Positions 7,054-59,695 of a DNA stretch of 64,000 bases are shown in pieces. Every line of letters begins with the position of its first letter. Position 1 is the stretch's first letter. Both the position numbers and the translations under genes were made by a program. Under the pieces are notes generated by a model, which did not search any database, was not told the DNA's origin, and saw nothing but the letters and a program-made list of their open reading frames with translations. The stretch covers positions 1-64,000 of the forward strand of contig JACVGT010000002.1 of the NCBI GenBank assembly GCA_018992685.1, given 5' to 3'. The stretch comes from Theionarchaea archaeon. GTDB taxonomy: Archaea > Methanobacteriota_B > Thermococci > Methanofastidiosales > SZ-28-30.

Positions 7054-7056
7054 ATC

Positions 7057-8436
7057 ATGGAAGAATGGAAGGTACTCCACGGCTTGTGTTCAAGAACTGT
7101 TACAGATCTAGAGAAAAAGGGAGTGACAGCAGAAGCTTTCCTTACAGCAGACAGTACCACTAAGGTATCTATCAGGAATTCCAGAATACTAACTCAAACC
7201 AACGAGAGAGACGCTGGCGTGGGAATACGGGTGATAAGAGGAAAAAGAGTGGGATTCGCCTGTACCAACGTGGTGACAAGGGAGGCTATCATGAAAGCAG
7301 GAGATATGGCATATCATATGTCCAGGGTGAGTTCTGAAGTGCCCGGACTTGAGTTGCCTGAGCCAGGTAGGTATCCAGTGGTCCAGGATTTATATGATGA
7401 AACCATCACGTCCATCACGGGTGACGAGGCAGTGGACGTTGCCTGCAGGGCCCTGACTGCAGCAGAAGGACATGATCCACGGGTGCGGGTGAAGAGTGGT
7501 GTTATCATGTTCAGGAGTGGCTGGCGAGGTGTAGTGTCTTCTTTGGGGATTGACAGTGAGGAGCAGGAAACAAGAGCCGCCATGTATCTGGGAGGAGTGG
7601 GTGAATCAGGTGATGAAGTCACCGGAATTTGCTCTGATTGTGAATGCGGTCGTACGGCGGTGCTTTCTCCTGAGACTCTGGGAGAGTCGGTAGGGGAAAA
7701 GGTGCTGGAAATGTTTCATCCGTGCTCGGTGAAAACAGGGAAAACCACGGTGATTCTGGGTCCAGAGGCAGGGAACTACCAGGTGATAGAAGTACTCATT
7801 GATGCACTGCGGGGAGATTCAGTCATGACAGGGCGTTCTTTCTGGACCGGGGAACTCGGATCTCCTGTCGCGAGTCCCCTCCTGAGTATCCATGATAATG
7901 GGGTATTGAGGAATGGCTTTTCGTCACGGCGATTTGATGACGAAGGGTACCCCTCTCAGGAAACTGTGGTTGTACAGGAGGGAGTTCTTGTATCCTATTT
8001 GCATAATGCTTGGTCTGCTCATGGGTTGAACGTGGAAAACACAGGAAATGCTTCTCGATTTGTAGGCGGGTTCGACCTTGTCCGTAATATTATTGGTTAC
8101 GGGTACCGTACAGAGCCAGAAATCTACTGTTCAAATCTGGTGATCCTTCCAGGAACCAAATCCAGAGATGAACTCGTGTCTGAGGTCTCTGAAGGGGTTT
8201 TGGTGGAATCAATGGCAGGATTTCCCCAGGCGGGATCTGGGGTGATCAGTGCACAATTATCTCGAGCATTTTCCATCAGGAACGGAGAGATACAGCACCC
8301 CGTAAAGGGCATGATCTCTGGAGTTGCATTTGACTGGCTAACCAAAATCTCTGATGTGGGAAATGACAGCAAGCAGTTTGAGAATGCCGTCCTCCCATCA
8401 CTACGAATTGAAGACGTCCACATGGTAGGTGGATGA
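7057..8436 (+). CDS. pmbA: PmbA/TldE-like protein
   Basis: Begins 4 nt after tldD stop; PmbA-like C-terminal region (NAWSAHGLNVENTGNASR, SEVSEGVLVESMAG). Confidence 0.85.
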   Translation: MEEWKVLHGLCSRTVTDLEKKGVTAEAFLTADSTTKVSIRNSRILTQTNERDAGVGIRVIRGKRVGFACTNVVTREAIMKAGDMAYHMSRVSSEVPGLELPEPGRYPVVQDLYDETITSITGDEAVDVACRALTAAEGHDPRVRVKSGVIMFRSGWRGVVSSLGIDSEEQETRAAMYLGGVGESGDEVTGICSDCECGRTAVLSPETLGESVGEKVLEMFHPCSVKTGKTTVILGPEAGNYQVIEVLIDALRGDSVMTGRSFWTGELGSPVASPLLSIHDNGVLRNGFSSRRFDDEGYPSQETVVVQEGVLVSYLHNAWSAHGLNVENTGNASRFVGGFDLVRNIIGYGYRTEPEIYCSNLVILPGTKSRDELVSEVSEGVLVESMAGFPQAGSGVISAQLSRAFSIRNGEIQHPVKGMISGVAFDWLTKISDVGNDSKQFENAVLPSLRIEDVHMVGG

Positions 8437-15938: not shown

Positions 15939-17495
15939 TTATCTCCGCTTGAGTGCTACACCCAGCAATACGAGAGCAGATACAAAGGCAGTTCCAAGGC
16001 AGGTACCGCCACACTCACAACCACAATCTCCATCAGCTGGTGGAGACACACTGGGGTTGCTGATAATCTGCTGTACCGCAGCGTATGCATCTACACGACC
16101 CCATCCCCACAGGCAGTCTTTGTTGACATTGCCCTTGTCGATGGCAGTTGCACCCATGCAGTTCTTGACCTGCAATGGGGTGGCTGTACCACGGGCGTCC
16201 AGCATCAAGGCAGCAACACCTGCAATGTGCGGTGTGGCCATTGATGTACCAGACATTGAAACATCACTGCATGAGGTTCCGGAATCGGCAGCGTAGATAT
16301 ATACACCGGGAGCTGTGATATCGGGCTTTATTCTGTCGTCAGTAGTAGGACCTCTGGAAGAGAAGCTGGCAAGAGCATCTGACTTGTCAGAAGCACCAAC
16401 AGTGATGACATCTGTTGCATCACCAGGTGTGCTAATGGTGCAGCATGCTGAACCATCATTTCCAGCAGCACATACGACGACAACACCCTGACCTACAGCC
16501 CAGTTGCACTCCTTAGCCAATGCGCTAGTACCGTCGCCACCGCTTCCACCTAAAGACAGTGACTCCACATCTGCTCCCTGGGCAACTCCGAAGTCAATAC
16601 CCTGGATGATAGCACTGTCAGTGCATTGTCCGCCAGAAGTACATACTTTGGCCATCATGAGGTCTGCACCAGGTGCAACACCCTCAGGACTGTCTTCGCC
16701 AGCGGCAATGGATGAGCAGTGGGTACCGTGTCCATGGTCATCGTAAGGTGTGGATTGACTGTTGACGTAGTCTGCCCAGGCAATGATCTTCCCAGAGGGG
16801 AAGTCACAGTGGTTGGGGTCAATACCAGTGTCGATGATACATATTTTAATTCCAGTACCATCGTATCCAGCATACCAGCAGTCATCTGCGTTGATCAGCG
16901 GGATACTGTCAGATAAGGTGACGTAGGCGACACCGTCAGCTTCTACGAACTCAACCTCAGCGACCTCAGACAGAGCTTTGATGTTGGACACACGAATGTC
17001 CACAACAGCACCCATGCCACTGAGGAAGTTGTAGTAGACACTGCCGAATTTTTCCAGTTTGCTGGCAGCGTTGGGATTCTTGAACCATACTAGAGTTCTT
17101 ACAATGTCGTTTCCGTTCATGCCATTGATCTGGTCCTTGATTGACCACTTCATTTTGGCCACGTTGTTCGGTACGACGGCGACATATTCGTTAGAACCTA
17201 CTTCAGTTAAGTAGGCCATTGGTATCATGAAATCGGTATCACTGATCTGGACAATGGGAAGGTATTCTACATTGATTTCCTTCGTCACTCTGTTCAGAAC
17301 ACCAGAGCCAACCGATATGTACAGGAAGTCAGAATCTTCCCCTGTAATATCCATGTTGAGCTTCAGCAGGTCTCTTCCCTCGTATCCAAAAGTCTGGACG
17401 TGAATTACTCCCTTGGTGGGCTTAGCACTCACGGCAACTAGTGAGAAAACAAGCATACTTATTGTGGCAAGCACGAAGATCTTTCGACTCTTCAT
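15939..17495 (-). CDS. Secreted S8 subtilisin-like protease with C-terminal CLGT-TM-KRR tail
   Basis: Triad motifs IIDTGIDPNHC, DDHGHGTHCSS, MSGTSMATPHIAG; signal peptide; SD GGAGGTGAAGAAATG. Confidence 0.92.
   Translation of the reverse strand: MKSRKIFVLATISMLVFSLVAVSAKPTKGVIHVQTFGYEGRDLLKLNMDITGEDSDFLYISVGSGVLNRVTKEINVEYLPIVQISDTDFMIPMAYLTEVGSNEYVAVVPNNVAKMKWSIKDQINGMNGNDIVRTLVWFKNPNAASKLEKFGSVYYNFLSGMGAVVDIRVSNIKALSEVAEVEFVEADGVAYVTLSDSIPLINADDCWYAGYDGTGIKICIIDTGIDPNHCDFPSGKIIAWADYVNSQSTPYDDHGHGTHCSSIAAGEDSPEGVAPGADLMMAKVCTSGGQCTDSAIIQGIDFGVAQGADVESLSLGGSGGDGTSALAKECNWAVGQGVVVVCAAGNDGSACCTISTPGDATDVITVGASDKSDALASFSSRGPTTDDRIKPDITAPGVYIYAADSGTSCSDVSMSGTSMATPHIAGVAALMLDARGTATPLQVKNCMGATAIDKGNVNKDCLWGWGRVDAYAAVQQIISNPSVSPPADGDCGCECGGTCLGTAFVSALVLLGVALKRR
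15942..16560 (-). repeat. Near-identical 3' segment shared with the second subtilase gene (22023-22640)
   Basis: Side-by-side reading shows only scattered differences, unlike the 5' parts of the two genes. Confidence 0.85.
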
Positions 17496-17563
17496 TTCTT
17501 CACCTCCTTTTTCCTTGTTATGCAGCTGCACAAGGCAGGCACACATTTCTGTTTGCCCTCATG

Positions 17564-20044: not shown

Positions 20045-21910
20045 CTATCTCTTTCTGAACACTTCTACAGAACCAAAGAGCAGCAGTATTCCCAGGAGGA
20101 CTGTTCCAAGGCAGCTTCCGCTGTTATCAACAGTCACAGTTATTGTATCGTCATCCACCAACTGACTGCTGGCATTGTATCCTTCAGCCTTCACCGTGTG
20201 GCTGGCGTCAGAGTACTGGGTTGTGTCCCAGCTCCACGAGAATGGGGATGTACTGTCTGTGGCCACGTTCGTGCCGTCTATGTAAAACTTGACGGATGTG
20301 ACTTCTGTGCTGGTGTCTACGGTGACGCTAACTGTGCCAGAAACGGTCTGGCCCTGCGAGGGGTTGGTTATAGAGACTGCTGGAATGACCTTGTATGGAT
20401 TGTCTGCGCAGTCGATAAAGTAGAGGGCACCTTGGTAGTTGTTTGCACACAGTGTGGGCAGCACTGAAGGCGGTGGGTAGAATTCTCCTCCCTCCAACTC
20501 AACTGTGAAGGAGAAGCACGGCATAGCGTCATTCTGTGTTACTCCGTAACTCCAGTCATCAGTAGTCCCAGAAGCCAGGTACAAATCTGCAGACTGCTGA
20601 GCTGTGTATCCAACGTAGCTAGCATACTTGGCACCCATGGTCTCGTGAACCTTTCGGTCGCTTGCATCTGAAATAGCATCATAAGTGTAACCCCACGGCC
20701 AGAGTACTAGCTCGCCGTAAGAGTGGTAGGTCAGTAGCACATTGATATCAGGATGAGCATTGAAGAAGTCCCTTACAACTGCCGTCTCGGGAGCGTCAAA
20801 GGCCTCATACCCCCGGAAGGTGTCACTGGTGCAGTAGCCTGAAGAGCCGCTTCCACCCCATCCGTAGGAGTAGTTTCTGTTCAGATCAGTCCCAATGCCA
20901 CCATCGCATGGCTGTCTGTTCTTTCTCCAGCTGAGTCCGCTGCCTGAGTAGCCACCAGAGTCATCATATACTTTACCATCTGGATTGATGATGGGCACAA
21001 TGTAGATTTCTCTGTTATTCACCAGATCAGTGATTGTCTGATTCGAACCGTAGTTGTCAGTCAGCTGATTTATGATGTACATGGCAACTTCTACTGTAGC
21101 ACATTCTCTTGCGTGGTGCAGGGCACAGAAGAAGATCTCGGCTTCAGATTCTTCAGTTGCAACGTTGTCTGAAATTTTGAGGTATGGGATGGTTCTGCCT
21201 TCATATGAAGTCCCGAGAGAATATACTTTGGCAATGGACGAGTGATCCGATTCAATCTGACTGAGTTCACTGACGACTTCAGCGTAGGTGTGGTACTCAT
21301 CTTCTATTACCAAGATCGACGGGCTGTCCACCACCTCAACGGTAAACCCAGAGAGGCAGAGTGCTATCAGACCTTCATAGGATACTAGAACATTCATGTA
21401 TCCCTCTTTAAGGTTCACTCCTGCAACGTCTACACCACTGATTGCCACCAGGGTTCTCAGGTACTTGTTGTTGGCGTACACTTTGACTTGAAGCTGCTCT
21501 GCTCCAATGTATTGATCGAACTCGGATGTGTCAATTTCCTTCTTCAGCACTGAGTGGGGCAGTTTGATCACGTAATCATTGAGTCCTTTCTGTTTGAGAT
21601 CACTCTTGGCGATAGTCACTACAAAATAGCCTTGTCCAACTCCGGTGACTGTCAAATCAACGTATTTGACAGCTGAAGCTATGGCAAAATGATACTGGAA
21701 CATTGCCATGTCCAGGTCAGTGAACTTACAGGTGATTGTCTTTTTGTCTTCCGAAATCTTTTCCAGTTGCAGGACGACAATATCCTCTTTTTCTCCTGCA
21801 ATCTGAACGTGGACGGTAACTGTGTTTCCGAGTCCAGTGGCTGCTGCAGATAAAGCGAGTATAGCTGTTAGGAATACTAGAGCTCCGATTTTACCTTTCA
21901 TGTCTTTCAC
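20045..21910 (-). CDS. Secreted M14 zinc carboxypeptidase with Ig-like domain and C-terminal CLGT-TM-RKR tail
   Basis: HHARECATVEV (HxxE), TDLNRNYSYGW, LLTYHSYGELVLWPWGY, FTVELEGG; Big_7-like NPSQGQTVSGTVSV. Confidence 0.9.
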   Translation of the reverse strand: MKDMKGKIGALVFLTAILALSAAATGLGNTVTVHVQIAGEKEDIVVLQLEKISEDKKTITCKFTDLDMAMFQYHFAIASAVKYVDLTVTGVGQGYFVVTIAKSDLKQKGLNDYVIKLPHSVLKKEIDTSEFDQYIGAEQLQVKVYANNKYLRTLVAISGVDVAGVNLKEGYMNVLVSYEGLIALCLSGFTVEVVDSPSILVIEDEYHTYAEVVSELSQIESDHSSIAKVYSLGTSYEGRTIPYLKISDNVATEESEAEIFFCALHHARECATVEVAMYIINQLTDNYGSNQTITDLVNNREIYIVPIINPDGKVYDDSGGYSGSGLSWRKNRQPCDGGIGTDLNRNYSYGWGGSGSSGYCTSDTFRGYEAFDAPETAVVRDFFNAHPDINVLLTYHSYGELVLWPWGYTYDAISDASDRKVHETMGAKYASYVGYTAQQSADLYLASGTTDDWSYGVTQNDAMPCFSFTVELEGGEFYPPPSVLPTLCANNYQGALYFIDCADNPYKVIPAVSITNPSQGQTVSGTVSVTVDTSTEVTSVKFYIDGTNVATDSTSPFSWSWDTTQYSDASHTVKAEGYNASSQLVDDDTITVTVDNSGSCLGTVLLGILLLFGSVEVFRKR

Positions 21911-22019: not shown

Positions 22020-23570
22020 TTATCTCCGCTTGAGTGCTACACCCAGCAATACGAGAGCAGATACAAAGGCAGTTCCAAGGCAGGTACCGCCACACTCACA
22101 ACCACAATCTCCATCAGCTGGTGGAGACACACTGGGGTTGCTGATGATCTGCTGTACCGCAGCGTATGCATCTACACGGCCCCATCCCCACAGGCAGTCT
22201 TTGTTGACATTGCCCTTGTCGATGGCAGTTGCACCCATGCAGTTCTTGACCTGCAACGGGGTGGCTGTACCACGGGCATCCAGCATCAAGGCAGCAACAC
22301 CTGCAATGTGCGGTGTGGCCATTGAAGTACCAGACATGGCAACATCACTGCATGAGGTTCCTGCATCGGCAGCGTAGATTGACACACCAGGAGCTGTGAT
22401 GTCGGGCTTTATCCTGTCGTCAGTGGTAGGACCTCTGGAAGAGAAGCTGGCAAGAGCATCTGACTTGTCAGAAGCACCAACAGTGATGACATCTGTTGCA
22501 TCACCAGGTGTGCTAATGGTGCAGCAAGTTGAACCATCATTTCCAGCAGCACAAGCAACGACAGCGCCCTGACCTACAGCCCAGTTGCACTCCTGAGCCA
22601 AGGTGCTGGTACCGTCGCCACCGCTTCCACCTAAGGACAGAGACAATACATCTGCTCCCTGAGCGACTGCCCAGTCAATACCCTGGACGATAGCAGTTGT
22701 GGTACCGGACCCGGAAGAGTTCAGCACCTTTGCACCCATCAATGAAGCAGCCTTGGCTACACCATATGGTGATGCAGCACCTGCAGCAATGGATGCGCAG
22801 TGAGTACCGTGTCCATGGTCATCGTAGGCTGTGGTCTTGCTGTTGACATAGTCCACGAATTTCACAATCTTCCCAGAGGGGAAGTCACAGTGGTTGGGGT
22901 CAATACCAGTGTCAATGATGCAGATCTTAATTCCAGCACCATCGTATCCGGCATTCCAGCAGTCATCTGCGTTGATCAGAGGTACACTGGAAGACAGTGT
23001 TGCGTAGACAATGGCGTCATCTTCCAGGAACAGAATTCCAGCATCCTCAGACAGTGCCTTGATGTTGGAAACAGCGATGGTCATGGATGCTCCCAGTCCA
23101 CTGGCAAACTCGTAGGTGACTGTACCGAATTTGGTGAGGTCGACAGCTCCGCCCTTGTACATAACCATGATGTCCATCAGATCATTGCCGTTCTTTCCAG
23201 CGATCTTGTCCTTCAAGTTCCACTTGATCTTGGTGACATCGTTGGGGACGACAGCGACGAATTCATTGTCACCCACCTCAGTCAGATATGCTTTGGGGAT
23301 GCCAAAGGTCGTCTCATTGATCTGGACAATGGGCAGCTTGTCAACGTTGATCTCCTTCTCGATTCTGTTGAGCATTCCGGGGTTGACGTTAACATAAATG
23401 TAGCCGGAGTCTTCACCAGTGATGTCAACGTTGAGTTTCAGAACGTCTCTTCCCTCAAATCCGAAAGTTTGAACGTGAATTGTTGCGTTGGTGGGCTTAG
23501 CACTAACAGCAATCAGTGAGAAAACAAGCATAGCCACTGTAGCAAGCACAAATACCTTTCGCGTTTTCAT
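22020..23570 (-). CDS. Secreted S8 subtilisin-like protease, paralog of 15939-17495
   Basis: Same triad motifs and identical CGCECGGTCLGTAFVSALVLLGVALKRR tail. Confidence 0.92.
   Translation of the reverse strand: MKTRKVFVLATVAMLVFSLIAVSAKPTNATIHVQTFGFEGRDVLKLNVDITGEDSGYIYVNVNPGMLNRIEKEINVDKLPIVQINETTFGIPKAYLTEVGDNEFVAVVPNDVTKIKWNLKDKIAGKNGNDLMDIMVMYKGGAVDLTKFGTVTYEFASGLGASMTIAVSNIKALSEDAGILFLEDDAIVYATLSSSVPLINADDCWNAGYDGAGIKICIIDTGIDPNHCDFPSGKIVKFVDYVNSKTTAYDDHGHGTHCASIAAGAASPYGVAKAASLMGAKVLNSSGSGTTTAIVQGIDWAVAQGADVLSLSLGGSGGDGTSTLAQECNWAVGQGAVVACAAGNDGSTCCTISTPGDATDVITVGASDKSDALASFSSRGPTTDDRIKPDITAPGVSIYAADAGTSCSDVAMSGTSMATPHIAGVAALMLDARGTATPLQVKNCMGATAIDKGNVNKDCLWGWGRVDAYAAVQQIISNPSVSPPADGDCGCECGGTCLGTAFVSALVLLGVALKRR
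22023..22640 (-). repeat. Near-identical 3' segment shared with the first subtilase gene (15942-16560)
   Basis: By-eye alignment of the two segments. Confidence 0.85.
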
Positions 23571-48309: not shown

Positions 48310-49986
48310 TTAATGGACAACCCAGGGCAGCTTCTCGGGTGCAATCTCATGGAGTCTCATGGTGTGAGCATCAATAAAAGTTGGCTCGTCGGTCTTCAGT
48401 GCCATTTTCAAGGCTTCTTCAAATTCCCTGTCCGTCTCTGCAACAGAGGATGACAATCCCAGTGATTCTGCAACACCATCGTACTTCACCTCAGGCAAGT
48501 CCACTGAGAGGTACTTCTGTTCCTTCCGGTATTTCAAGTGGACCTTTATCCAGCCATACTCATTGTTATGGAAGAGAATGACCACAGCAGGAATCTGTTC
48601 TCTCGCCACACTGGCGAGTTCAGCCATGCTGACCAACATGCTTCCGTCTCCTGTCAAAGAGATGATCCGCGACGAGGGACGTCCTTTATGTGCCCCTACG
48701 GCGCCCGGGATGGCATACCCCAGAGAACCAAACGCTCGGGGACTCAGGAACATCCTTCTCGCTCTGGAAGGATAAAATGAGGCAAAATACGGGGTAGGTG
48801 TTCCTGCATCAGCAACCAGAATCACGTCCTCAGGCAAAAGCTTCTTACATGTTTTCACAACAGTCAGAGGATGTATGGATCTCGAAACACTCGGATCTGC
48901 CAGTTCAGCTTCTTTCCATGCAGTGATGGTTTCATTCAGCCTTTCACTTCTTCCTGCATCTTTTCTCATTTTCGTCTCCAGCCCTCGTACCAGAATCTCT
49001 AGGACGCTTCGTGCATCTCCCACCAGTCCGCAGCTCACATCGTAGTTTCTCCCTATCTCTTGAGGATCAATGTCTATTTGGATGATCTTTCTCCTTCCAT
49101 CATTTGGAGGTGTGTGCCAGTGACTGGTGACGACAGAACCCGTCTGTGTTCCTACAAAGATCACCAGATCGGCCTCATTCAACATCACATTCGCAGCAGG
49201 ACTTCCTCCATTCTCTCCCACCACTCCCGCGCTGAGTGGATGTTCCTCATCCATGCTCCCTTTGCCAGTTATGCTGGTTCCCACCAGGCTGCCCGTGATC
49301 ACAGCAAACTCCTCAAGTGCCTCATACGCCTGGGAAAGGTGAATACCTCCGCCTGCCACCACGAAGGGAGTCTCCGATTCCATAATGATGTTCAGTGCTT
49401 CACTTACATCATCAGTGGAAGGACAAATCCGGACTGCAGGAAGGGATGTATACAGCCTTCTGAATGCTTTCCTTTCTGCAGAACCCTCACAACCAAGAAC
49501 ATCCATGGGAAAACTGATGTGGACTGCTCCTGGCTTTCCTGTGGTGGCTTCTCTGAAGGCATTTCTCACTGTTTCAGGTATCTTTTCCGCCTGAGTAACT
49601 ACCGTGCTCCACTTGGTAGCATCTTCGAAAAAATGCACCTGATCCATTTCAGTGAGCACGGCCTTTCCTTTCCCTGCAACTGGTATGTCTGTGTTTATGG
49701 CAACCATTGGCAGTGATGAATAATGAGCTTCATACAACCCAGGTATAATATACGATGCTCCTCCGCCGGAAGGTCCTTCACACACGCCCGGCCTGTTGGT
49801 GATCCTGGCATAGGCATCTGCCATGTATGCTGCATTTCGTTCATCGGTGGCCAACACGTGGCAGATTTCATCCTCCGCATCATACAGGGCCTCGTAAAGA
49901 TCCAGGCTGGTATCTCCTGGCAGTCCAAAAATGTACCTCACTTCGTGCTCTATCAACGATTCAACCAGAAGTGCAGCTCCTTTCAT
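48310..49986 (-). CDS. Thiamine-pyrophosphate enzyme, acetolactate synthase-like
   Basis: VRYIFGLPGDTSLDLYEAL, TDERNAAYMADAYAR, LTGDGSMLVSMAELASVAREQIPAVVILFHNNEYGW. Confidence 0.85.
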   Translation of the reverse strand: MKGAALLVESLIEHEVRYIFGLPGDTSLDLYEALYDAEDEICHVLATDERNAAYMADAYARITNRPGVCEGPSGGGASYIIPGLYEAHYSSLPMVAINTDIPVAGKGKAVLTEMDQVHFFEDATKWSTVVTQAEKIPETVRNAFREATTGKPGAVHISFPMDVLGCEGSAERKAFRRLYTSLPAVRICPSTDDVSEALNIIMESETPFVVAGGGIHLSQAYEALEEFAVITGSLVGTSITGKGSMDEEHPLSAGVVGENGGSPAANVMLNEADLVIFVGTQTGSVVTSHWHTPPNDGRRKIIQIDIDPQEIGRNYDVSCGLVGDARSVLEILVRGLETKMRKDAGRSERLNETITAWKEAELADPSVSRSIHPLTVVKTCKKLLPEDVILVADAGTPTPYFASFYPSRARRMFLSPRAFGSLGYAIPGAVGAHKGRPSSRIISLTGDGSMLVSMAELASVAREQIPAVVILFHNNEYGWIKVHLKYRKEQKYLSVDLPEVKYDGVAESLGLSSSVAETDREFEEALKMALKTDEPTFIDAHTMRLHEIAPEKLPWVVH

Positions 49987-50418
49987 GCTATCACATTCCT
50001 CCTTTGGGGATTCCATTTAGAGACAGCCCCCTTAAAATGTTATTGCCATACTATTTTGGGAAATCTCCAGGTCAGGTGATCTGACAGAGACGCAGCAACC
50101 ACCCATTACTGGAATCCTCACGAATCGCGAGGCCTCTGTGATGAAAACCTCCTTCAAAGCATCCAGCATCTCTAAGGAAACTCTGGAGGAAGGAATACAC
50201 ACCATCACACACTCTAATCTGCAAAAGAACCTGAAGAAGAGCATATTCTCATCTCCATACAATCATGCCCGGGAATTTTTCCATGTTCTCACAAGATGAC
50301 CCCTGCTGATACCTTTCACTGAGTTTAATATAGTGTTACCAGAATATTCTGGGAAAATTCATAAGAACTTCCATTCCCTCTGCTGAATGAGGATGATCCT
50401 GACAGTAAATGCTGCAGG

Positions 50419-50440: not shown

Positions 50441-50469
50441 AAACACAGATGAGGAAAGGAGGACTGAAA

Positions 50470-50727
50470 ATGAAGGATTTTTGGTTTGCCAAAAAGAAAG
50501 CAGTGACGGCTATGATTATCTATGCTGTCGTTTTCTTCCTGGTATTGTATGAATATCCAATGCTGGGTTGGTTCGACAGTCCAACGCTGACTGCTGGAAT
50601 GCCTACTTTTGTCCTGTACATTTGGATCTTGAATGTACTGTACATTGTCTTGACTGGAGCTGTGGTCATGTGGATGTTCAAGAACGCAGACAGGATTGAG
50701 TGGAAAGGAGCACCTAAGGAGGGATAA
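50470..50727 (+). CDS. DUF3311-like small membrane protein, accessory to symporter
   Basis: Two TM segments directly upstream of SSS symporter; SD GGAGG before ATG 50470. Confidence 0.7.
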   Translation: MKDFWFAKKKAVTAMIIYAVVFFLVLYEYPMLGWFDSPTLTAGMPTFVLYIWILNVLYIVLTGAVVMWMFKNADRIEWKGAPKEG

Positions 50728-50729
50728 GA

Positions 50730-52247
50730 ATGGAATCATGGGTTATTGTATTGCTCGGTCTTTTTGCTTACATCCTGGTGGCAGTCTACATCGGGCTCAG
50801 AGGCTATAAGACCACGAAGCACACGCTGGAAGACTACTTCCTGGGTGGTAGAGGAATTGGCGTCATTCTGCTGTTCTTCACCATGTACGCCACGTACCAG
50901 AGTGCCTACATGTATATTGGTGTGACTGGATTCACGTATACGCATGGTATTGGTATCTGGTACTCGAATGTGGCCAACCTGATGTGGGGATTCCTGTTCC
51001 TCTTGATTGCCATCCCAATGTGGAAGCTGGGAAAGAACTTTGGCTACGTGACGCAGGCTGATTTCTTTGCCGACCGATTTGGCTCAGAGATTCTCAGACT
51101 GATCATTGCCTTGTGGATGATTCTGGGATTGACGCCATACATTGGTTCTCAAGTTCTGGCTACTGGAAGGACTCTGAATACCATCTCAGGTGGTGTTCTC
51201 ACTCTTGGCGTGGCTGCTGCCCTTTACATCATTACAGTGATCATCTATACCAGTCTTGGAGGATTGAAAGGTGTGGTGTGGACTGATCTGATTCAGGGTC
51301 TACTCATGCTGATCTTTATCTGGCTGGGAGTCTTTGTACTGGTGGGAAAAGTAGGCGGGTTTGGAGCACTCTTTGAGCAGATCCAGGCTATCAAACCAGA
51401 ACTGCTGACCATCCCGGGTCCAAAAGGACTCTTAACGCCGCGTGCATGGTTCGGGTTCCTGCTGGTGGATGCACTGGGAGGAATCATGTGGATTCAAAAC
51501 TGGATGCGATACTACGTCGGCAAGACCTGGAGAACAATGGCAATGATGTCATTCTTGGTTCCAATCGGGACAACCCTGACATTCCTGCCCGCAATGCTGA
51601 TCGGGCTGTCAGGTGTGATTCTGGAACCCGGACTGGCCTCAGGAGACGCAATCTTCCCCACTCTCATGGTGAATTACCTCCCCGTGTGGGTAGTCATGGG
51701 ATTGATTGTGGGTCTGTTCGCAGCGTCCATGTCTACGGTGGATTCACTGTCACTGGCATTGTCAGCCAGTATATCCAAAGATATCTACGGACTGATCAAA
51801 CCAGGTACTGACGAGGCGAAGTTGGTCAAGATGGGCCGCTTCTTGATTATTGCCGTGCTGGTGGCCGGTGGACTGGTAGGCTATGTTGCTGCTGGAACGT
51901 ACATTGTGGTTCTGTTGACCTTGCTTTCTCTAGGCTTGAGTGCTGTGCTGTTCCCCGTGGCTGTGGCTGGTATCTACTGGAAGGGCGCCAACCGGTATGG
52001 AGCTATTGCAGGTATTCTCGTTGGTGCTGCAGTGGGTGTCAAGACCCTGCTCATTGGACCTGAGTTCTGGCTGGGTGTATACGGTGGATTGTGGGCTGTA
52101 CTAGCCTGTGCTGTTGCACTGATAGTTGTCAGTCTCGTTACACCACACAGTGAGAAGGAGAAGAGAGCAGAGAGTAGGATTTCTGAGGCCCTGGCCTCTC
52201 CCGTCATAACCATGATGGACGTCTCAAAGGACTACAGTGCGAAGTAG
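50730..52247 (+). CDS. Sodium:solute symporter (SSS family)
   Basis: DYFLGGRGIGVILLFFTMYATYQSA, AASMSTVDSLSLALSASISKDIY. Confidence 0.92.
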   Translation: MESWVIVLLGLFAYILVAVYIGLRGYKTTKHTLEDYFLGGRGIGVILLFFTMYATYQSAYMYIGVTGFTYTHGIGIWYSNVANLMWGFLFLLIAIPMWKLGKNFGYVTQADFFADRFGSEILRLIIALWMILGLTPYIGSQVLATGRTLNTISGGVLTLGVAAALYIITVIIYTSLGGLKGVVWTDLIQGLLMLIFIWLGVFVLVGKVGGFGALFEQIQAIKPELLTIPGPKGLLTPRAWFGFLLVDALGGIMWIQNWMRYYVGKTWRTMAMMSFLVPIGTTLTFLPAMLIGLSGVILEPGLASGDAIFPTLMVNYLPVWVVMGLIVGLFAASMSTVDSLSLALSASISKDIYGLIKPGTDEAKLVKMGRFLIIAVLVAGGLVGYVAAGTYIVVLLTLLSLGLSAVLFPVAVAGIYWKGANRYGAIAGILVGAAVGVKTLLIGPEFWLGVYGGLWAVLACAVALIVVSLVTPHSEKEKRAESRISEALASPVITMMDVSKDYSAK

Positions 52248-52268
52248 GACTCAGAATCTCTATCCATA

Positions 52269-52290
52269 TTTTTTTATTTTTTTGTTTCTT
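52269..52290 (+). terminator. Oligo-T terminator-like tract after symporter
   Basis: TTTTTTTATTTTTTTGTTTCTT just after the 52247 stop. Confidence 0.55.
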
Positions 52291-52309
52291 ACTATAAAAG
52301 GTGATTTCA

Positions 52310-52789
52310 ATGCAGAGAGAATTGTTTGACACGCTGTGCTTGTATGGACTGTCTGTTGGATATCCCAGAAGCTGGAAAATAATCATAGACTCACGGCAGG
52401 TGACCTTCAAGGAGGGTAAGGTCAACGCACTGGGCAATGACATTCTCATGGGGGTTTTGTGGGAAAAAGTGGAGAAAGCCATAACCCTGGAAGAATATGA
52501 AGAACGGGTATTGACCAATCTGAAGAAAAAAGACAAGAAATTCAAGCTTATCAGGAAAGAGGTTGACGAGGTCTCTGGACACCGAGCGTTCAAGGAGACC
52601 ATGGAAACCAGAGGGCGTTCCGGGTTCATCGGGCTACAGAAGGGAGCAGTTGAACACAACCACTGTATCTTCTTTTGTGAATATCACAGGCGATTTGTCA
52701 CCGTGTATGTGTCTCTGGTGCCCTCCTTGAGGACGGAGTATCAGTTTGTGATTGATGAGATATTCGATTCAATCACATGCATTCACTGA
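52310..52789 (+). CDS. Small protein of unknown function
   Basis: SD GGTGAT 4 nt before ATG; pattern VGYPRSWKI..VTVYVSLVPSLRTEYQFVIDEIFDSI suggests a PsbP/DcrB-like fold. Confidence 0.55.
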   Translation: MQRELFDTLCLYGLSVGYPRSWKIIIDSRQVTFKEGKVNALGNDILMGVLWEKVEKAITLEEYEERVLTNLKKKDKKFKLIRKEVDEVSGHRAFKETMETRGRSGFIGLQKGAVEHNHCIFFCEYHRRFVTVYVSLVPSLRTEYQFVIDEIFDSITCIH

Positions 52790-52915
52790 CCGATGGAAAC
52801 CCTGTGATCCGAATACACGGAAAAGGAACCTCAGAACGTCTATTCACGAATCGGAACAGGAAAAAGAAAGGAGAGGAAAGAAAATCTGTGCCCAAGGTCG
52901 AGAGGAGGTAAGAAG

Positions 52916-53890
52916 ATGGATAGCGAAATAATACAGATGATGGTGGGAGCCAAGAAAGTGATCAAGGAATGTGCCCAGACGAAGCCAGGCGAGAAGGTTC
53001 TGATAGTGACAGATACAGAGATTGAACTCAGCATATCGACTGCACTGGCTGCAGCTGCTTACTATGAAGATGCTGAACCCTTGATCGCTGTCATGACTCC
53101 TCGAAAAGGACACGCTGAAGAGCCCCCAGCACATGTCAGGGAGGCCATGCTGGCTTCTGATGTGATCGTCACCCCCACATCCAAAACACTGTTCCATACG
53201 AAAGCCACCAGGGATTCCTGTGCCAAAGGTGCACGTGTTCTCTCCATGACGGGTGCCCTCCCCCGCACTCTCATGCGGGGAGCAATTACTGCCAACTTTG
53301 AGGAGATAGAACCCATCTGCAGGAAACTGGCTGATCGGCTAACCGAGGCAGAAAAGATACATCTGACCACACCAGGGGGAACAGACATCACATCCTCCCT
53401 AAAGGGGAGAGTAGGACAGTTCGAGCCTGGTATTGCCAGGAACAAAGGTGATCTTGTGGGAGTGCCCGATATTGAGGCAAATATCTCTCCTGTGGAAGAC
53501 ACCTCCCAGGGGGTCTTCGTAATAGATGTGACAGCCACCGACTTCGGGTTTGTGGACGCACCCATCAGAATTGAAGTGAAAAATGGAAAGGCAGTTAAAA
53601 TTGAAGGTGGTGTCATAGCAGAGCGCCTGAAGAACTTGCTGGAGAGTGCACATGATCCCAACCAGTACTTTGTCGCAGAGTATGGACTTGGACTGAATCC
53701 AAAAGCAGAGCTGCAGGGGCGCATTATTGAGGATGAATCTGCTCTCGGTACAGCACACATTGCCCTTGGTGACAACATCACCCTTGGTGGACAGAATAGG
53801 GCACCGTTTCACATTGACCTCATTATGAAAGATCCCACAGTAGAGCTGGATGGCAAGGTCGTCATTGACCGGGACAAGGTCATGGTGTAG
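52916..53890 (+). CDS. M29 aminopeptidase-like / NicX-like metalloprotein
   Basis: C-terminal metal-ligand pattern VAEYGLGLNPKA..GTAHIALGDNITLGG..APFHIDLIM. Confidence 0.75.
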   Translation: MDSEIIQMMVGAKKVIKECAQTKPGEKVLIVTDTEIELSISTALAAAAYYEDAEPLIAVMTPRKGHAEEPPAHVREAMLASDVIVTPTSKTLFHTKATRDSCAKGARVLSMTGALPRTLMRGAITANFEEIEPICRKLADRLTEAEKIHLTTPGGTDITSSLKGRVGQFEPGIARNKGDLVGVPDIEANISPVEDTSQGVFVIDVTATDFGFVDAPIRIEVKNGKAVKIEGGVIAERLKNLLESAHDPNQYFVAEYGLGLNPKAELQGRIIEDESALGTAHIALGDNITLGGQNRAPFHIDLIMKDPTVELDGKVVIDRDKVMV

Positions 53891-53898
53891 GTGGATAC

Positions 53899-54615
53899 AT
53901 GTATGGCTGGCGGTGCAGAATAGGGCTGATCATACCTTCAGATAACACAGTCATGGAGAGTGAATTCAACAAGCTGTTCAGAGACATACCTGGTGTGAGT
54001 GTCCACGCAACCCGTGTCTTTCTGGAAGAACTCACTGTGGAAACATTGTTGCAGATGAAAGAGGGGTTGAAGAGAGCATGCGAAGAGCTCAAGAGTGCAG
54101 AGATGGATGTCCTTGCCTATGGTTGCACCAGTGGCAGCTTTGTTAAGGGATTGCATTTTGACCAGGAGATCATCCAGGAAATCGAAGAAGAGACCCAGAT
54201 AACTGCCACCACCACCTCCACAGCAGTTATTGAGGCATTGAGGAAGCTCAAGGTCAACAAGATCGCTCTGGGAACTCCCTATTCTGACGAAATCAACGAG
54301 AAGGCAATCCACTTCTTTGAAGGAAACAACATTGAAGTGACCAATTCTCGAGGGCTGAATGTTGTGCCTGACGTTGATGTTGGAAAGCAGGAACCCTACA
54401 TTGCATACAACCTGGGAATCAAAGTGAATACAGAGGATTGCGACTGCGTTTTCCTGAGCTGTACTGATTTCAGGACGGTTGAGATTATAGACCTTCTGGA
54501 AACCCGATTGAAAAAACCTGTCATCAGTTCAAACCAGGCCACCTTATGGCACTGTATTGCTCTGAAGAACCTGGGGATGACTCTCCCCGGGTATGGGACG
54601 CTTTTGGCAGGGTGA
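53899..54615 (+). CDS. Maleate isomerase / Asp-Glu racemase superfamily enzyme
   Basis: Two Cys motifs YGCTSGSF and LSCTDFRT; GLIIPSDNTVMESE N-terminus. Confidence 0.82.
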   Translation: MYGWRCRIGLIIPSDNTVMESEFNKLFRDIPGVSVHATRVFLEELTVETLLQMKEGLKRACEELKSAEMDVLAYGCTSGSFVKGLHFDQEIIQEIEEETQITATTTSTAVIEALRKLKVNKIALGTPYSDEINEKAIHFFEGNNIEVTNSRGLNVVPDVDVGKQEPYIAYNLGIKVNTEDCDCVFLSCTDFRTVEIIDLLETRLKKPVISSNQATLWHCIALKNLGMTLPGYGTLLAG

Positions 54616-54628
54616 AGAAGGTGTAACA

Positions 54629-55963
54629 ATGTCAGAAGAAATCGAAATTGACGAAGCACGGTTGAACCAATTTGTCCCCGAACCAGGGTACCTGGACGTC
54701 AACCAGAAGGGACACCTTGAGTTTGACGGGGTGGACTGTGTGGATCTCCGGGATCAGTATGGGTCCCCCTTGTATGTCATGAGTGAGAGAAGGATACGAG
54801 AAAACTACCGCAGTCTTGTGAACACCTTCACAGCACTGTACAGCAGGGCGAAGATTGCCTATGCCTACAAGGCAAACCCCATATTGGCAGCTTTGAGAAT
54901 TCTCAATGAAGAAGGTGCTACAGCAGAAGTGATATCCACGGGTGAACTCTTCCTGGCAAAAGTGGTAGGTGTCAGGGGAGACAATATTGTGCTCAATGGG
55001 TGCTACAAGGACAGGAAGGGTATCAGACTGGCCATCAGAATGGGTGCTGTGATTAACGTTGATTCATTTCATGAACTGGACATGGTTGATGAGGAAGCAT
55101 CTCATGTGGGGATACCTGCCAGGATTGGAATCCGCATAAACCCCATAGTCAGAACGGGTACATTGAGTGTCTGGGAGACTGCCTTGGACGAAAGCAAATT
55201 TGGGATCAGGTTGGAAAAGGGGTTGGAAGCCTACAAAAAGGCAAAGAGCTTGAAGAACGTGGAAATTGTTGGAATACACACTCATATTGGATCTCAGATT
55301 GAGAATACCAACCCGTACCGCGTAGCCAGTACTCGGATTATGGATTTTGTGGGAGATCTCAAAGAAAAGCTGGACATTGATCTTGAACTGGTGGATCTAG
55401 GTGGCGGGATTGCTGTCCCCTTCAAGTACATTGACCGTGCTCTCCTGGAGGAGTATGCTCATGCCATACTGGATCCTTTCATCCAGAAAAAGGAAGAGTG
55501 TGGATTGGGAGATTGTGACGTGGTCATTGAGCCGGGAGGGAGTATCATCGGCACCTCCACTATTCTGCTGGTGACTGTGGGAACTGTAAAGAGAGAGGAA
55601 TCAGGCAGGAAGTGGGCCCTGGTGGATGGTGGTGCAAATATCAATCTGCGGGCTACCCAGGGGTGGTATGTGTACCAGTCTGTGTGCTGCAACAAAATGA
55701 GGGAGACAAAAAAAGAGGTTGTCAATGTTGCAGGTCCTCTGTGTTATGCAGGAGACGTTCTGGGATACAACAGGGAGTTGCCCTACCTGGATGAAGGCGA
55801 TGTCCTGGCATTTCTGGATTGCGGAGCATATACCATGGCTATTCTCAATAGGTACAATTCCTATCCCTTCCCTGCAGCTGTCCTCATCACAGACAGTGTA
55901 CCCAGGATTATCAAGAGAAGAGAAGCTCTAGTTGATCTTTTCATGGGAGAGGAACTTATATAG
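54629..55963 (+). CDS. LysA-like PLP decarboxylase (alanine racemase fold) with non-canonical CYAGD motif
   Basis: AYAYKANP (PLP Lys), HTHIGSQ, EPGGSIIG, GPLCYAGDVLG. Confidence 0.88.
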   Translation: MSEEIEIDEARLNQFVPEPGYLDVNQKGHLEFDGVDCVDLRDQYGSPLYVMSERRIRENYRSLVNTFTALYSRAKIAYAYKANPILAALRILNEEGATAEVISTGELFLAKVVGVRGDNIVLNGCYKDRKGIRLAIRMGAVINVDSFHELDMVDEEASHVGIPARIGIRINPIVRTGTLSVWETALDESKFGIRLEKGLEAYKKAKSLKNVEIVGIHTHIGSQIENTNPYRVASTRIMDFVGDLKEKLDIDLELVDLGGGIAVPFKYIDRALLEEYAHAILDPFIQKKEECGLGDCDVVIEPGGSIIGTSTILLVTVGTVKREESGRKWALVDGGANINLRATQGWYVYQSVCCNKMRETKKEVVNVAGPLCYAGDVLGYNRELPYLDEGDVLAFLDCGAYTMAILNRYNSYPFPAAVLITDSVPRIIKRREALVDLFMGEELI

Positions 55964-55992
55964 TTCTTCTTTCTATTATATTGTGTGATAGT

Positions 55993-57216
55993 ATGGATTT
56001 TCGCCAATTGACTGAGATCAGGACAACATATGGAACTCCGACCTATGTGTATGACAAGCAGGTCATGGTCACGCAGTATCAGACCCTGGCTCAGAGCATT
56101 CACTATACTCCTCTCAAAATATATTATGCCTGTAAAGCTAACACCAATTGCGTTATACTGAGAATATTTAAGGAGTTAGGGTGTGGGGTGGACTGTGTCT
56201 CACCTGGCGAAGTCTTTCTTGCTTTGAAAGCAGGATTCGATTCTTCTGACATTTTATTTACAGGCAACAATCTCACAAATTCTGAAATGAAGTATGCTGT
56301 TTCTCATGATGTTTTGATGACTGCAGATTCTTTGTCTCAATTGGAGCTGTATGGGCAGATAAACCCGGAATCTGACGTTTGTGTCAGGATCAATCCCAAC
56401 CTGGGGGCAGGGCACCACAAACACGTCATTACGGGAGGGCTTCAGAGTAAATTCGGCATATACCAGGCTGATGTTCCTTACATCAGGTCGCTTCTACATA
56501 AGTATAACCTCCATTTGAAAGGCGTCCACATGCATATTGGCTCGGGGATTCTAGAGCCCGGACTGCTTCTCAAGGGCGTGAGTTCTCTCTTGGACGTGGC
56601 CAGTGAGTTCCCGGACCTGGAATTTGTAGACATTGGAGGGGGACTTGGGGTCCCATACGAGCCAGAGGAAGCACCCATGGATGTGCAGAAATTTGGCGAG
56701 CTGCTCACAGACATGATAACCCAGTGGGTTGAGCAGCATCACCAGATTGCCCTGGCCTTGGAACCAGGACGATTTCTGGTGGCAGAATCTGGCATTCTTC
56801 TAACTACGGTGACTGCAGTCAAAGAGAATCCCAAGTACACCTTTGTGGGTGTGGACACAGGGTTCAACCATTTCATGAGGCCTGCCCTGTATAATGCGTA
56901 CCATGAAATCGTCAAAGTGGAGCCTTCAGAATCCAGAGGAGGACTTCAGGAACGTGTTGACGTCACGGTGTGTGGTGACATCTGTGAGAGTGCAGACATA
57001 TTTGCCAGAAACAGAGCCCTCCCACCACTCAAAGAGGGTGATCTTCTGGCTATTTTGGATACGGGAGCATATGGATTCAGTATGGCATCAGAGTATAATT
57101 CCAGACCGCTCCCTGCAGAAGTCCTGGTTGATAAAACAACTGTTACCGAGATCAGAAAGAGAGGAACGTTCCAGGACTTGTTACGCAATCAATGTGAGGT
57201 AGATACCAATGGATAA
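55993..57216 (+). CDS. lysA: Diaminopimelate decarboxylase-like, canonical CESAD motif
   Basis: YYACKANTN, HMHIGSG, LEPGRFLVAESG, GDICESADIFA. Confidence 0.88.
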   Translation: MDFRQLTEIRTTYGTPTYVYDKQVMVTQYQTLAQSIHYTPLKIYYACKANTNCVILRIFKELGCGVDCVSPGEVFLALKAGFDSSDILFTGNNLTNSEMKYAVSHDVLMTADSLSQLELYGQINPESDVCVRINPNLGAGHHKHVITGGLQSKFGIYQADVPYIRSLLHKYNLHLKGVHMHIGSGILEPGLLLKGVSSLLDVASEFPDLEFVDIGGGLGVPYEPEEAPMDVQKFGELLTDMITQWVEQHHQIALALEPGRFLVAESGILLTTVTAVKENPKYTFVGVDTGFNHFMRPALYNAYHEIVKVEPSESRGGLQERVDVTVCGDICESADIFARNRALPPLKEGDLLAILDTGAYGFSMASEYNSRPLPAEVLVDKTTVTEIRKRGTFQDLLRNQCEVDTNG

Positions 57217-58336
57217 CCAGGAAATTAGGGCCCATTTCGAGCCTGCGGTGAGCAACTGGACATATTTGAACGCCGCAGCGTGCGGGCTTTCCCCGCAATT
57301 CAGTAAGACTGGATGCGATACGTGGTGGGACGATAAACTGACCCATGGATCAGTACATTACCATACATGGGAGGATGACACTCTCGAAATCAAAGCCAAG
57401 TTTGGGACCCTGATCAATGCAGAGAAAGAAGAGATTGCCTGCGTGATGAACACGTCAGAAGGGTTGAACTTTGCCATCAATGGTATGAGGTTCAAAAAGG
57501 GGGACAACGTCGTTGTGAATAAGTACGATTTTCCCTCCAATTTTCTGCCCTGGCTGGCCTTGAAGCAGAAGGGCGTCGAGGTACGGTTGATGGAGGTTAC
57601 GGATAATAGGATCCCCGTGGAACGTATTCAGGAGAAAGTCGATGAGAATACCAGAGCTGTGTCTATCAGCAGCGTTCAATTCAAGAACGGATTCCGCAGT
57701 GACCTGAAAGCACTTGGAGCATTGTGCAAGGAGGTTGATGCATATTTTGTGGTAGATGCTATCCAGTCACTGGGAGCGCTTGAAATGGATGTAAAACGGT
57801 ATGGAATTGACATTCTGTGTACCAGCAGCTACAAATGGTTGCTAGGCCCTGATGGTGTTGGCTTTCTGTACTGCAGCAAGGACATTCTGGATGAGATTTC
57901 CACCACGAATATTGGATGGATGAGTACACCTGATCCATGGAGTTTCCCCACTGAGCTGGAGTTCATGAAAACGGCTCAGAAATTCGAGTCTGGGACATTG
58001 CCCTGGGCCCTCCTGTACAGTATGGACCCTATCCTTGATTTCTTCCTCAAGGTAAAGGTGAAGAATATTACAGAACACGTTTTTGGGCTTCTTGATTACT
58101 TGATTGAGGAGCTGGAAGCCCTGCATGTGGACATTGTTTCATCCCTTCGAGAGAACGAGCGGAGCTGTATCCTGGTCTTTGATGTCAAGGACAGAGAGAA
58201 GCTTGTAGATCTCTATCAGAGCAAAAAGGTGAGAATCAGTCTCAGGGATGGAATACGGGTAGCCCCTCACATCTATAACAATGAGGATGATATTACCCGG
58301 CTTGTATCCATTTTAAAGGAGTTTCTGGGTGGTTAG
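57209..58336 (+). CDS. Class V aminotransferase / cysteine desulfurase-like PLP enzyme
   Basis: VVDAIQSLGALEMDVKRYGIDILCTSSYKWLLGPDGVGFLY; overlaps lysA by 8 nt. Confidence 0.88.
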   Translation: MDNQEIRAHFEPAVSNWTYLNAAACGLSPQFSKTGCDTWWDDKLTHGSVHYHTWEDDTLEIKAKFGTLINAEKEEIACVMNTSEGLNFAINGMRFKKGDNVVVNKYDFPSNFLPWLALKQKGVEVRLMEVTDNRIPVERIQEKVDENTRAVSISSVQFKNGFRSDLKALGALCKEVDAYFVVDAIQSLGALEMDVKRYGIDILCTSSYKWLLGPDGVGFLYCSKDILDEISTTNIGWMSTPDPWSFPTELEFMKTAQKFESGTLPWALLYSMDPILDFFLKVKVKNITEHVFGLLDYLIEELEALHVDIVSSLRENERSCILVFDVKDREKLVDLYQSKKVRISLRDGIRVAPHIYNNEDDITRLVSILKEFLGG

Positions 58337-59158
58337 ATGAAAATAGAAGGAATTACGTTCTATAAAATGTCTGGTGCAGGAAATGATTTCCTGGTTATTG
58401 ACAATCGAGAAGGCATCATCCCTGAGAAAGAGAAGGGTGACGTTGCCAGAAGAGTGTGCAGGAGACGGCTTTCAGTGGGAGCAGATGGGATTCTTCTGGT
58501 GGAGCTATCACAGATTGCCACCTTCAGAATGAGATATTTCAATGCAGACGGGACTGAAGGGGAAATGTGTGGAAATGGAGCACGATGCATTACCCGATTT
58601 GCTTTTGTGAAAGGGATTGCAGGCGAAGAAATGACAATTGAGAGTATGTCCGGGATACTGGAGGCACGCGTCATGGGTGAGAAGGCCACAATCACGCTGA
58701 ACCCAGTGACAGAAAAGGAACTTGACAGGGAGATTACGGTTGATGGCCAGAAGATACAGTTTGATTACATAGAAGAAGGAACACCCGGACTGCCGCACAG
58801 CGTGATATTCAAAGATGATCTGACTGAGGAGGAAGATATCGAAGAGATTGGCAGAAAAATAAGGTACCACAAAGCCTTTCAGAGGGGAACAAATGCTAAT
58901 TTCTGCAGAGTCCTGGGGAAGGATACAATCCTGAACAGGACCTACGAGAGGGGCGTGGAGAGAGAGACCCTGGCCTGTGGAACTGGGTCTGGAGCTGCTG
59001 CGTGTGCAGTATTCTTGCACGGAATCTGTGGACCTGAAATCGAGGTAAAAACCAAAGGTGGAACTCTCAAGGTCACCATAGGAGATGAAAACCTGCAGAA
59101 GATTTATTTGACTGGAGATGCTCGAATCGTGTATGAGGGGATCTTAAAGGAGGTATGA
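58337..59158 (+). CDS. dapF: Diaminopimelate epimerase-like
   Basis: KMSGAGNDFLVIDN, MCGNGARC and LACGTGSGA with both catalytic Cys; abuts previous gene. Confidence 0.93.
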   Translation: MKIEGITFYKMSGAGNDFLVIDNREGIIPEKEKGDVARRVCRRRLSVGADGILLVELSQIATFRMRYFNADGTEGEMCGNGARCITRFAFVKGIAGEEMTIESMSGILEARVMGEKATITLNPVTEKELDREITVDGQKIQFDYIEEGTPGLPHSVIFKDDLTEEEDIEEIGRKIRYHKAFQRGTNANFCRVLGKDTILNRTYERGVERETLACGTGSGAAACAVFLHGICGPEIEVKTKGGTLKVTIGDENLQKIYLTGDARIVYEGILKEV

Positions 59159-59483
59159 TCGGAGCTGGGTTGAACCAGGACGTGGACAGATTGTCTGGTG
59201 CAGAGTCAGGGAATCGGATAAAATTCAGTAGTATTAGTTCTTCCGGAAAAGAGAGACTTCTTTTGATACATTTCTGCAAACGTGGTATATAGACCTTGCA
59301 CTTGGAGAATTTTTTCAAATTTGCCATTTGATTCACTGTATCCCTTCCAGGGATAACCTAAGGTTTCTCTACTCACACAGATCTAAATTGGTGTCATCGA
59401 TCACAGTAATCGGCATATATCCATCGATATGACTTTCACGCTCAGGATAATACTTATATTGAACAAAACCACCGGGCAATCCA

Positions 59484-59695
59484 TGGCTACAGAATCCAGA
59501 AGAAGATTCACCTTCCCTGTAGGATACCATGAGTTCCACAGAGACCAGGTTTTCAATTTCCAGCTCAATCGCTGGTATTCTCTTGGATATACACGATTCG
59601 AAGATTTGAAAGAGGCGGTTTCCTCCAGAATTCTAGAGTTTAGAAAAGGGCCACGACTGCATAATCTCAGTTTGATTCGAAAGAGAACACTCTAG
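59484..59695 (+). pseudogene. N-terminal remnant of an alpha/beta-hydrolase-like gene
   Basis: FPVGYHEFHRDQVFNFQLNRWYSLGYTRFEDLKEA resembles the N-terminus of longer hydrolases, then the ORF stops. Confidence 0.45.

What the first reader, a model, noticed from the sequence alone, without database searches (positions are those of the whole stretch)
50470..59158. Compact operon: transporter, M29-like, maleate-isomerase-like, two LysA-fold decarboxylases, class V PLP enzyme, DapF
Sequence: the six enzyme genes from 52916 are adjacent with gaps of 0-30 nt or overlaps, and follow DUF3311/SSS transport genes. No dapA, dapB or other early lysine genes lie in the window. Inference: rather than ordinary lysine synthesis, this set (a racemase-superfamily enzyme, an epimerase, two decarboxylases, a PLP C-S/C-N lyase or transaminase, and a peptidase-like metalloenzyme) could import and process an unusual amino acid or dipeptide, or build a D- or diamino-acid product.
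Basis: partly seen in the sequence, partly recalled or inferred. Interest (0 to 1): 0.85.

Follow-up and report, generated by a model that had tools for sequence, protein, structure and literature searches.

The report
Archaeal cell-wall amino-acid salvage operon
A compact gene cluster in an uncultured sediment archaeon appears to import and convert an amino acid typical of bacterial cell walls (diaminopimelate) into lysine, although the archaeon seems unable to make that amino acid itself; the roles of the neighbouring enzymes, including a second, altered decarboxylase, are inferred and untested.

Summary
The operon is real. Window 50449-59158 of a Theionarchaea genome holds an SSS symporter followed by six tightly packed enzyme genes: M29-like metalloprotein, AMDase/maleate-isomerase-type racemase, LysA1, LysA2, class V PLP enzyme and DapF. 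All nine genes keep their order in the only other species held in this genus, at 85-95% protein identity.

These are the only LysA-fold and DapF genes in the genome. DapB and DapL are absent from both Theionarchaea genomes, the DapA-family genes have altered active-site motifs, and no LysX was found. The sister family keeps a canonical dapB-dapA-lysA-dapF-dapL operon. LysA2 and DapF look competent for diaminopimelate (DAP). LysA1 has lost two of the three distal-site residues that recognise DAP (EPGR Arg to Gly, CES Glu to Tyr) while keeping the PLP site.

Best reading: an import and salvage/catabolic operon that turns exogenous, probably bacterial, DAP into lysine (LL-DAP to meso-DAP to L-Lys). 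LysA1, the racemase, the M29-like protein and the class V enzyme would handle a second D- or modified amino acid. LysA-only DAP salvage has been predicted in gut bacteria, so this is a new variant of a known kind. Substrates are inferred.

The parts
50449..50727 (+). 92-aa membrane protein, likely small partner of the symporter
   Evidence: 88% identical in L018; no Pfam family above cut-off
50730..52247 (+). SSS-family sodium:solute symporter (uptake; substrate unknown)
   Evidence: PF00474 149.5 bits; PanF/PutP-like but below every equivalog cut-off
52301..52789 (+). 162-aa conserved protein, no family
   Evidence: 88% identical in L018
52916..53890 (+). M29/NicX-superfamily metalloprotein, probably a hydrolase
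   Evidence: PF02073 28.6 bits; AF2 model pLDDT 93.7, TM 0.83 to NicX and about 0.7 to AmpT/PepS; Glu255 at the NicX His265 position and His299-x-Asp301
53899..54615 (+). AMDase/maleate-isomerase/EutA-type racemase or isomerase with two cysteines
   Evidence: PF17645 127.5 bits; both Cys motifs (YGCTSG, LSCTDF) in the alignments
54593..55963 (+). LysA1: divergent fold-III PLP decarboxylase; start more likely ATG 54629
   Evidence: TIGR01048 363.5 bits; EPGG for EPGR and CYAGD for CES; alternative starts listed
55981..57216 (+). LysA2: canonical meso-DAP decarboxylase; start more likely ATG 55993
   Evidence: TIGR01048 424.6 bits; EPGR, MRPALY, CES all present
57209..58336 (+). class V PLP enzyme, not a cysteine desulfurase by its C-terminal sequence
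   Evidence: PF00266 169.6 bits; all SufS/IscS/kynureninase models far below cut-off; PLP-lysine motif SSYKWLLGP and no Cys in the C-terminal loop
58337..59158 (+). DapF, diaminopimelate epimerase
   Evidence: TIGR00652 230.5 bits; both catalytic Cys motifs MCGNG and ACGTG; only DapF in the genome
48310..50016 (-). divergent TPP enzyme, conserved neighbour, not part of the operon
   Evidence: 85% identical in L018
50263..50448 (.). conserved upstream region, possible promoter/leader
   Evidence: 88% DNA identity to L018 over 185 bp

Best explanation
An uptake and salvage/catabolic operon for amino acids of bacterial cell-wall origin. The SSS symporter imports a small amino-acid substrate (inferred). 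DapF converts LL-DAP to meso-DAP, and LysA2 removes the D-centre carboxylate of meso-DAP to give L-lysine (inferred from motif-level conservation). LysA1 keeps the PLP site but has lost two distal-site residues for DAP; it is probably a decarboxylase of another, likely D-configured, amino acid with a neutral or acidic side chain. The two-cysteine AMDase-type protein would racemise an acidic or cyclic partner, the M29-like protein would hydrolyse an amide or peptide derivative, and the class V enzyme would transaminate or cleave a product. Shown by sequence: gene content, order, conservation in two species, missing DapB/DapL, residue changes. Inferred: every substrate and the direction of flow.
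For: The only LysA-fold and DapF genes of the genome are here. No DapB by family or by a relative's DapB. No DapL: best hits about 28-30% against 66-72% in the sister family. DapA-family genes lack the GTTGE threonine pair (own GSTGE, without the Arg of the YNxxxRTG motif; G001 GSAGE). The only LysX-like gene is MptN beside a gene that reads as Mch. Sister family f3 has dapB-dapA-lysA-dapF-dapL. LysA2 keeps EPGR/RPALY/CES; LysA1 has EPGG/CYAGD; these residues bind the distal carboxylate and amino group of DAP in the T. maritima enzyme (PMC8277567). Related M29-like and AMDase-like genes sit in amino-acid or cyclic-amide clusters: with PxpA/B/C-like genes (L039), HyuA/B-like genes (L048), and SSS, aminotransferase and ketoacid-oxidoreductase-like genes (L100) (named by eye from translations). 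Precedents: LysA-only DAP salvage (PMC9026213); P. abyssi Pab87 cleaves D-peptides, proposed for bacterial cell debris (PMC2651629).
Against: No muropeptide peptidase (LdcA, MpaA, NlpC/P60) was seen in the operon and the genome was not searched for one. The symporter substrate is unknown. Four of six enzymes have no DAP-specific role. Both genomes are incomplete (91% and 88%). DapA-family proteins pass NCBI's dapA cut-off despite their altered motifs. DapF has GLPH where the f3 DapFs have GNPH, so its substrate may differ.
Confidence: 0.45

Rival explanations
1. A non-canonical but complete lysine pathway: DapA-like proteins, an unknown reductase in place of DapB, the class V enzyme in place of DapL, then DapF and LysA2.
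For: DapA-family genes above the dapA cut-off, one of them 3 kb downstream of dapF in L018; G001 has a Semialdhyde_dhC gene; a PLP enzyme of unknown function lies between lysA2 and dapF.
Against: No DapB in two genomes; DapA active-site motifs altered; no Asd/ArgC-type hit in the window's genome; transporter, M29-like and racemase genes have no place in such a pathway.
Confidence: 0.15
2. The operon makes an unusual amine, D-amino acid or small metabolite, with LysA1 as tailoring decarboxylase (as BtrK or FslC do).
For: LysA1 has a changed substrate pocket; related fold-III enzymes include BtrK, FslC and DokD.
Against: No ligase, NRPS, NIS synthetase or ATP-grasp gene in the cluster; it starts with an uptake-type symporter.
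Confidence: 0.12
3. Breakdown of an N-heterocycle or cyclic amide by a NicX-like and NicE-like pair, with the PLP enzymes downstream.
For: M29-like protein nearest to NicX in fold and adjacent gene nearest to maleate isomerase; AMDase-like homologues beside PxpA/B/C-like and HyuA/B-like genes.
Against: The NicX position His265 (an iron ligand, from memory) is Glu255 here; NicD and NicF are missing; an oxygenase is unlikely in a lineage I take to be anaerobic.
Confidence: 0.12
4. Ordinary lysine-salvage genes next to unrelated amino-acid catabolic genes, with no joint pathway.
For: Only one genus seen; the M29-like and class V queries each have nine matches in this genome.
Against: Tight spacing and overlaps, and order kept across two species with about 26-40% third-position divergence.
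Confidence: 0.16

Closest known systems
Canonical DAP-aminotransferase lysine operon (dapB-dapA-lysA-dapF-dapL), as in sister family f3 (L071, L072)
   Same: LysA2 and DapF
   Different: No DapB or DapL, no intact DapA; extra transporter, racemase, M29-like, class V and second LysA-fold genes
LysA-only DAP salvage variant predicted in 14 gut genomes (PMC9026213)
   Same: DAP-to-lysine end of the pathway without its synthesis
   Different: Here in an archaeon, with DapF and a transporter-led operon
Archaeal use of bacterial D-peptides: Pab87 CubicO of Pyrococcus abyssi (PMC2651629)
   Same: Proposed use of bacterial cell-wall debris by an archaeon; aminotransferase and transport genes nearby
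   Different: Different enzymes; no DAP decarboxylase or epimerase in the passages read
D-ornithine/D-lysine decarboxylase DokD (6n2h)
   Same: Fold-III PLP decarboxylase, among the nearest structures to LysA1
   Different: LysA1 scores 232.7 against a DokD cut-off of 700; its pocket was not compared residue by residue
nic cluster NicX and NicE (nicotinate catabolism)
   Same: Fold of the M29-like protein; maleate-isomerase-type neighbour
   Different: NicX His265 replaced by Glu; no NicD or NicF

Membership tests
meso-DAP decarboxylase: LysA2 | lysA equivalog score and distal-site residues EPGR, R(P), CE(S/T) | tested here: met
   424.6 bits against 297.9; all motifs present
meso-DAP decarboxylase: LysA1 | distal carboxylate Arg (EPGR) and distal amino Glu (CES) | tested here: not met
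   EPGG and CYAGD in both species; score passes the equivalog cut-off, so the name alone misleads
Diaminopimelate epimerase DapF | two catalytic cysteines and equivalog score | tested here: met
   MCGNG and ACGTG; 230.5 bits against 114.65
Canonical DAP lysine pathway | DapA, DapB and DapL present in the genome | tested here: not met
LysW (AAA) lysine pathway | LysX over cut-off | tested here: not met
   only MptN, 161.7 bits against 275.6
Peptidase M29 | M29 metal-ligand set and aminopeptidase activity | tested here: inconclusive
   Glu255, His281, His299-x-Asp301 fit the M29 pattern as I recall it; score barely over cut-off; nearest fold NicX
Arylmalonate decarboxylase (AMDase) | single catalytic Cys (first Cys replaced by Gly, from memory) and equivalog score | tested here: not met
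   both Cys present, 122.7 bits against 225; racemase/isomerase type more likely
Cysteine desulfurase (SufS/IscS) | C-terminal catalytic Cys loop and equivalog score | tested here: not met
DAP salvage system | uptake of DAP and its conversion to lysine in vivo | not testable with these tools
   needs assays

The most novel reading that the evidence does not exclude
An archaeal operon dedicated to harvesting bacterial peptidoglycan amino acids, in which a second LysA-fold enzyme (LysA1) has become a D-amino-acid decarboxylase with a new substrate, working with two cofactor-free racemases.
Probability: 0.25. Interest if true: 0.7.

Novelty: new variant of a known kind. Interest (0 to 1): 0.45.

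Why it matters
If true, an archaeon that apparently cannot make DAP would obtain lysine from bacterial cell-wall remains, a concrete and testable case of necromass use in sediments. It would also explain DapF and LysA in an archaeal genome without DapB, which automatic annotation would read as a partial lysine pathway. LysA1 would add a natural decarboxylase with a distal pocket of a kind that has been explored by mutation of a DAP decarboxylase (PMC8277567).

Tried and rejected
Ordinary lysine biosynthesis: rejected on missing DapB/DapL/LysX. LysX-like hit at G000:C20: its neighbour reads as Mch and its best NCBIfam match is MptN (below cut-off), so it was dropped. DUF3311 label for the small protein: no support. 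Cysteine desulfurase, kynureninase and AMDase labels: sub-threshold and motif mismatches. Searching genome contigs for the M29-like protein gave only the same-genus locus L018. Plasmid tblastn with LysA1 gave nothing above about 34% identity among the listed hits. Promoter and terminator scan: no better than shuffles, and a bacterial consensus in an archaeon. The LysA1 model (pLDDT 76.7 from 8 sequences) gives the expected fold but is too weak for pocket comparison.

Full report
Setting. The window is contig C4 (positions 1-64000) of a 3.03-Mb draft archaeal genome, 45 contigs, 91% complete. That f5 is Thermococcales is my reading, not a tool result.

Observation. Spacing between M29, AMDase-like, LysA1, LysA2, class V and DapF is 8, -23, 17, -8 and 0 nt, or 8, 13, 29, -8 and 0 with better starts for LysA1 and LysA2. 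The symporter is preceded by the 92-aa membrane protein, and a 162-aa family-less ORF separates the symporter from the enzyme block, with a 126-nt gap before M29. All nine genes and the divergent TPP enzyme keep their order in L018 at 85-95% protein identity. Codon-position divergence (third position 0.26-0.40, second 0.01-0.08) shows purifying selection on all nine. Because only two species of one genus are available, conservation of order is good evidence of function but says little about age or spread.

Lysine pathway in this genome. There are two LysA-fold genes, both in the operon, and one DapF. DapB is not found with the family model or with a DapB from a sister family. DapL of the sister family finds only about 28-30% generic aminotransferases in the two Theionarchaea, against 66-72% in f3. 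One DapA-family gene was found here, as a fusion to a formaldehyde-activating-enzyme domain. It has GSTGE for GTTGE and lacks the Arg of the YNxxxRTG motif; the gene in L018 has GSAGE. The only LysX-like gene has MptN as its best family and lies next to a gene that reads as Mch. A Semialdhyde_dhC hit exists in G001 but not in the window's genome. Sister family f3 carries dapB-dapA-lysA-dapF-dapL in one operon (gene names beyond those searched were read from translations), so absence here is a lineage difference rather than poor detection. Both Theionarchaea drafts are incomplete, which limits each single absence; the joint absence of DapB and DapL in both is the stronger point.

The two decarboxylases differ. 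LysA2 keeps EPGR, MRPALY and CES. LysA1 has EPGG, LRATQGW and CYAGD in both species. In the T. maritima enzyme Arg249 and Arg285 hold the distal carboxylate and Glu315 the distal amino group; replacing Glu315 lowers DAP activity and opens activity on other D-amino acids (PMC8277567). Mapping by alignment: LysA1 lacks the Arg249 and Glu315 equivalents and keeps the Arg285 one. The solved DAP decarboxylases aligned (M. jannaschii, A. aeolicus, V. cholerae, E. coli) all keep EPGR, R(P) and CE(S/T). LysA1 keeps the PLP lysine, the HIGSQ motif, the glycine-rich loop and the Cys/Asp of CxxxD. LysA1 and LysA2 are 29% identical, so this is not a recent duplication. LysA1 passes the lysA equivalog cut-off (363.5 against 297.9), so automatic annotation would call it LysA. 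Its nearest structures are M. jannaschii DAP decarboxylase and DokD.

Other enzymes. DapF has both cysteines; it has GLPH where f3 has GNPH, of unknown effect. The AMDase-like protein has both cysteines, unlike natural AMDase with one (recalled knowledge), which suggests racemase or isomerase chemistry. The M29-like protein models well (pLDDT 93.7) and is nearest to NicX (TM 0.83) and then to AmpT/PepS (about 0.7). By the alignment, NicX His318 and Asp320 are His299 and Asp301 here, while NicX His265 is Glu255; with His281 this resembles M29 aminopeptidases as I recall them. The class V protein has the PLP lysine but no C-terminal cysteine loop. It falls below every named model.

Context elsewhere. 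AMDase-like homologues occur in 91 of 115 genomes searched. In three of the loci read (L039, L041, L048) they lie beside cyclic-amide or oxoproline genes, and in L100 with symporters, an M29-like gene, an aminotransferase and ketoacid oxidoreductase-like genes (names read from translations, not from family searches). M29-like genes occur in 47 of 115 genomes, with nine matches in this one. LysA1 has no relative above 34% in the phylum outside the genus.

Mechanism. The part I commit to is: LL-DAP or meso-DAP enters, and DapF and LysA2 give L-lysine. This follows from two conserved enzymes and missing synthesis. The rest (LysA1, racemase, M29-like, class V) is inferred to process a partner residue; no result fixes its substrate. 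Precedents exist for each idea separately: LysA-only salvage predicted in gut genomes, a D-peptide peptidase in Pyrococcus proposed to digest bacterial debris, and glutamate racemase in ammonia-oxidising archaea proposed for D-Glu use (PMC12363236). The searches of the library did not bring up a description of an archaeal DAP salvage operon; the library omits most subscription journals.

Verdict. Real, conserved in two species, and not ordinary lysine synthesis. New variant of a known kind, with one feature (LysA1) that would be of wider interest if its substrate were found.

Noticed in passing
window 59329-59618 and G000:C4:77786-78075 (L051): A 290-bp direct repeat (93% identical) bounds about 18.5 kb (a UvrD-like gene and cobalamin-type biosynthesis and transport genes, read by eye) lying between dapF and the methyltransferase gene; L018 has no such block there, so it is an insertion or rearrangement.
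   Followed up: partly
L070:7764-9218 (G000:C8): A DapA-family domain fused to a formaldehyde-activating enzyme (Fae) domain in one 484-aa ORF.
   Followed up: partly
L048:3792-7986 (G000:C32): A second AMDase-like gene directly followed by two large ORFs that read as HyuA/HyuB-type hydantoinase or oxoprolinase.
   Followed up: partly
window 48310-50016: Divergently transcribed TPP enzyme, acetolactate-synthase-like but below the cut-offs of all listed models, conserved beside the operon in L018.
   Followed up: no
window 5665-8433: TldD/PmbA-type metallopeptidase pair; another adjacent pair of similar look lies at L070:2-2436.
   Followed up: partly
window 15942-17546, 20048-21910, 22023-23570: Three ORFs with similar beginnings (for two of them HVQTFG.EGRD.LKLN.DITGED), apparently paralogous secreted proteins.
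   Followed up: no
L044:7997-13244: Locus in a relative of the same class with an M29-like gene, two class V PLP genes, an NSS-like transporter and a RidA-like gene: a possible parallel catabolic cluster.
   Followed up: partly
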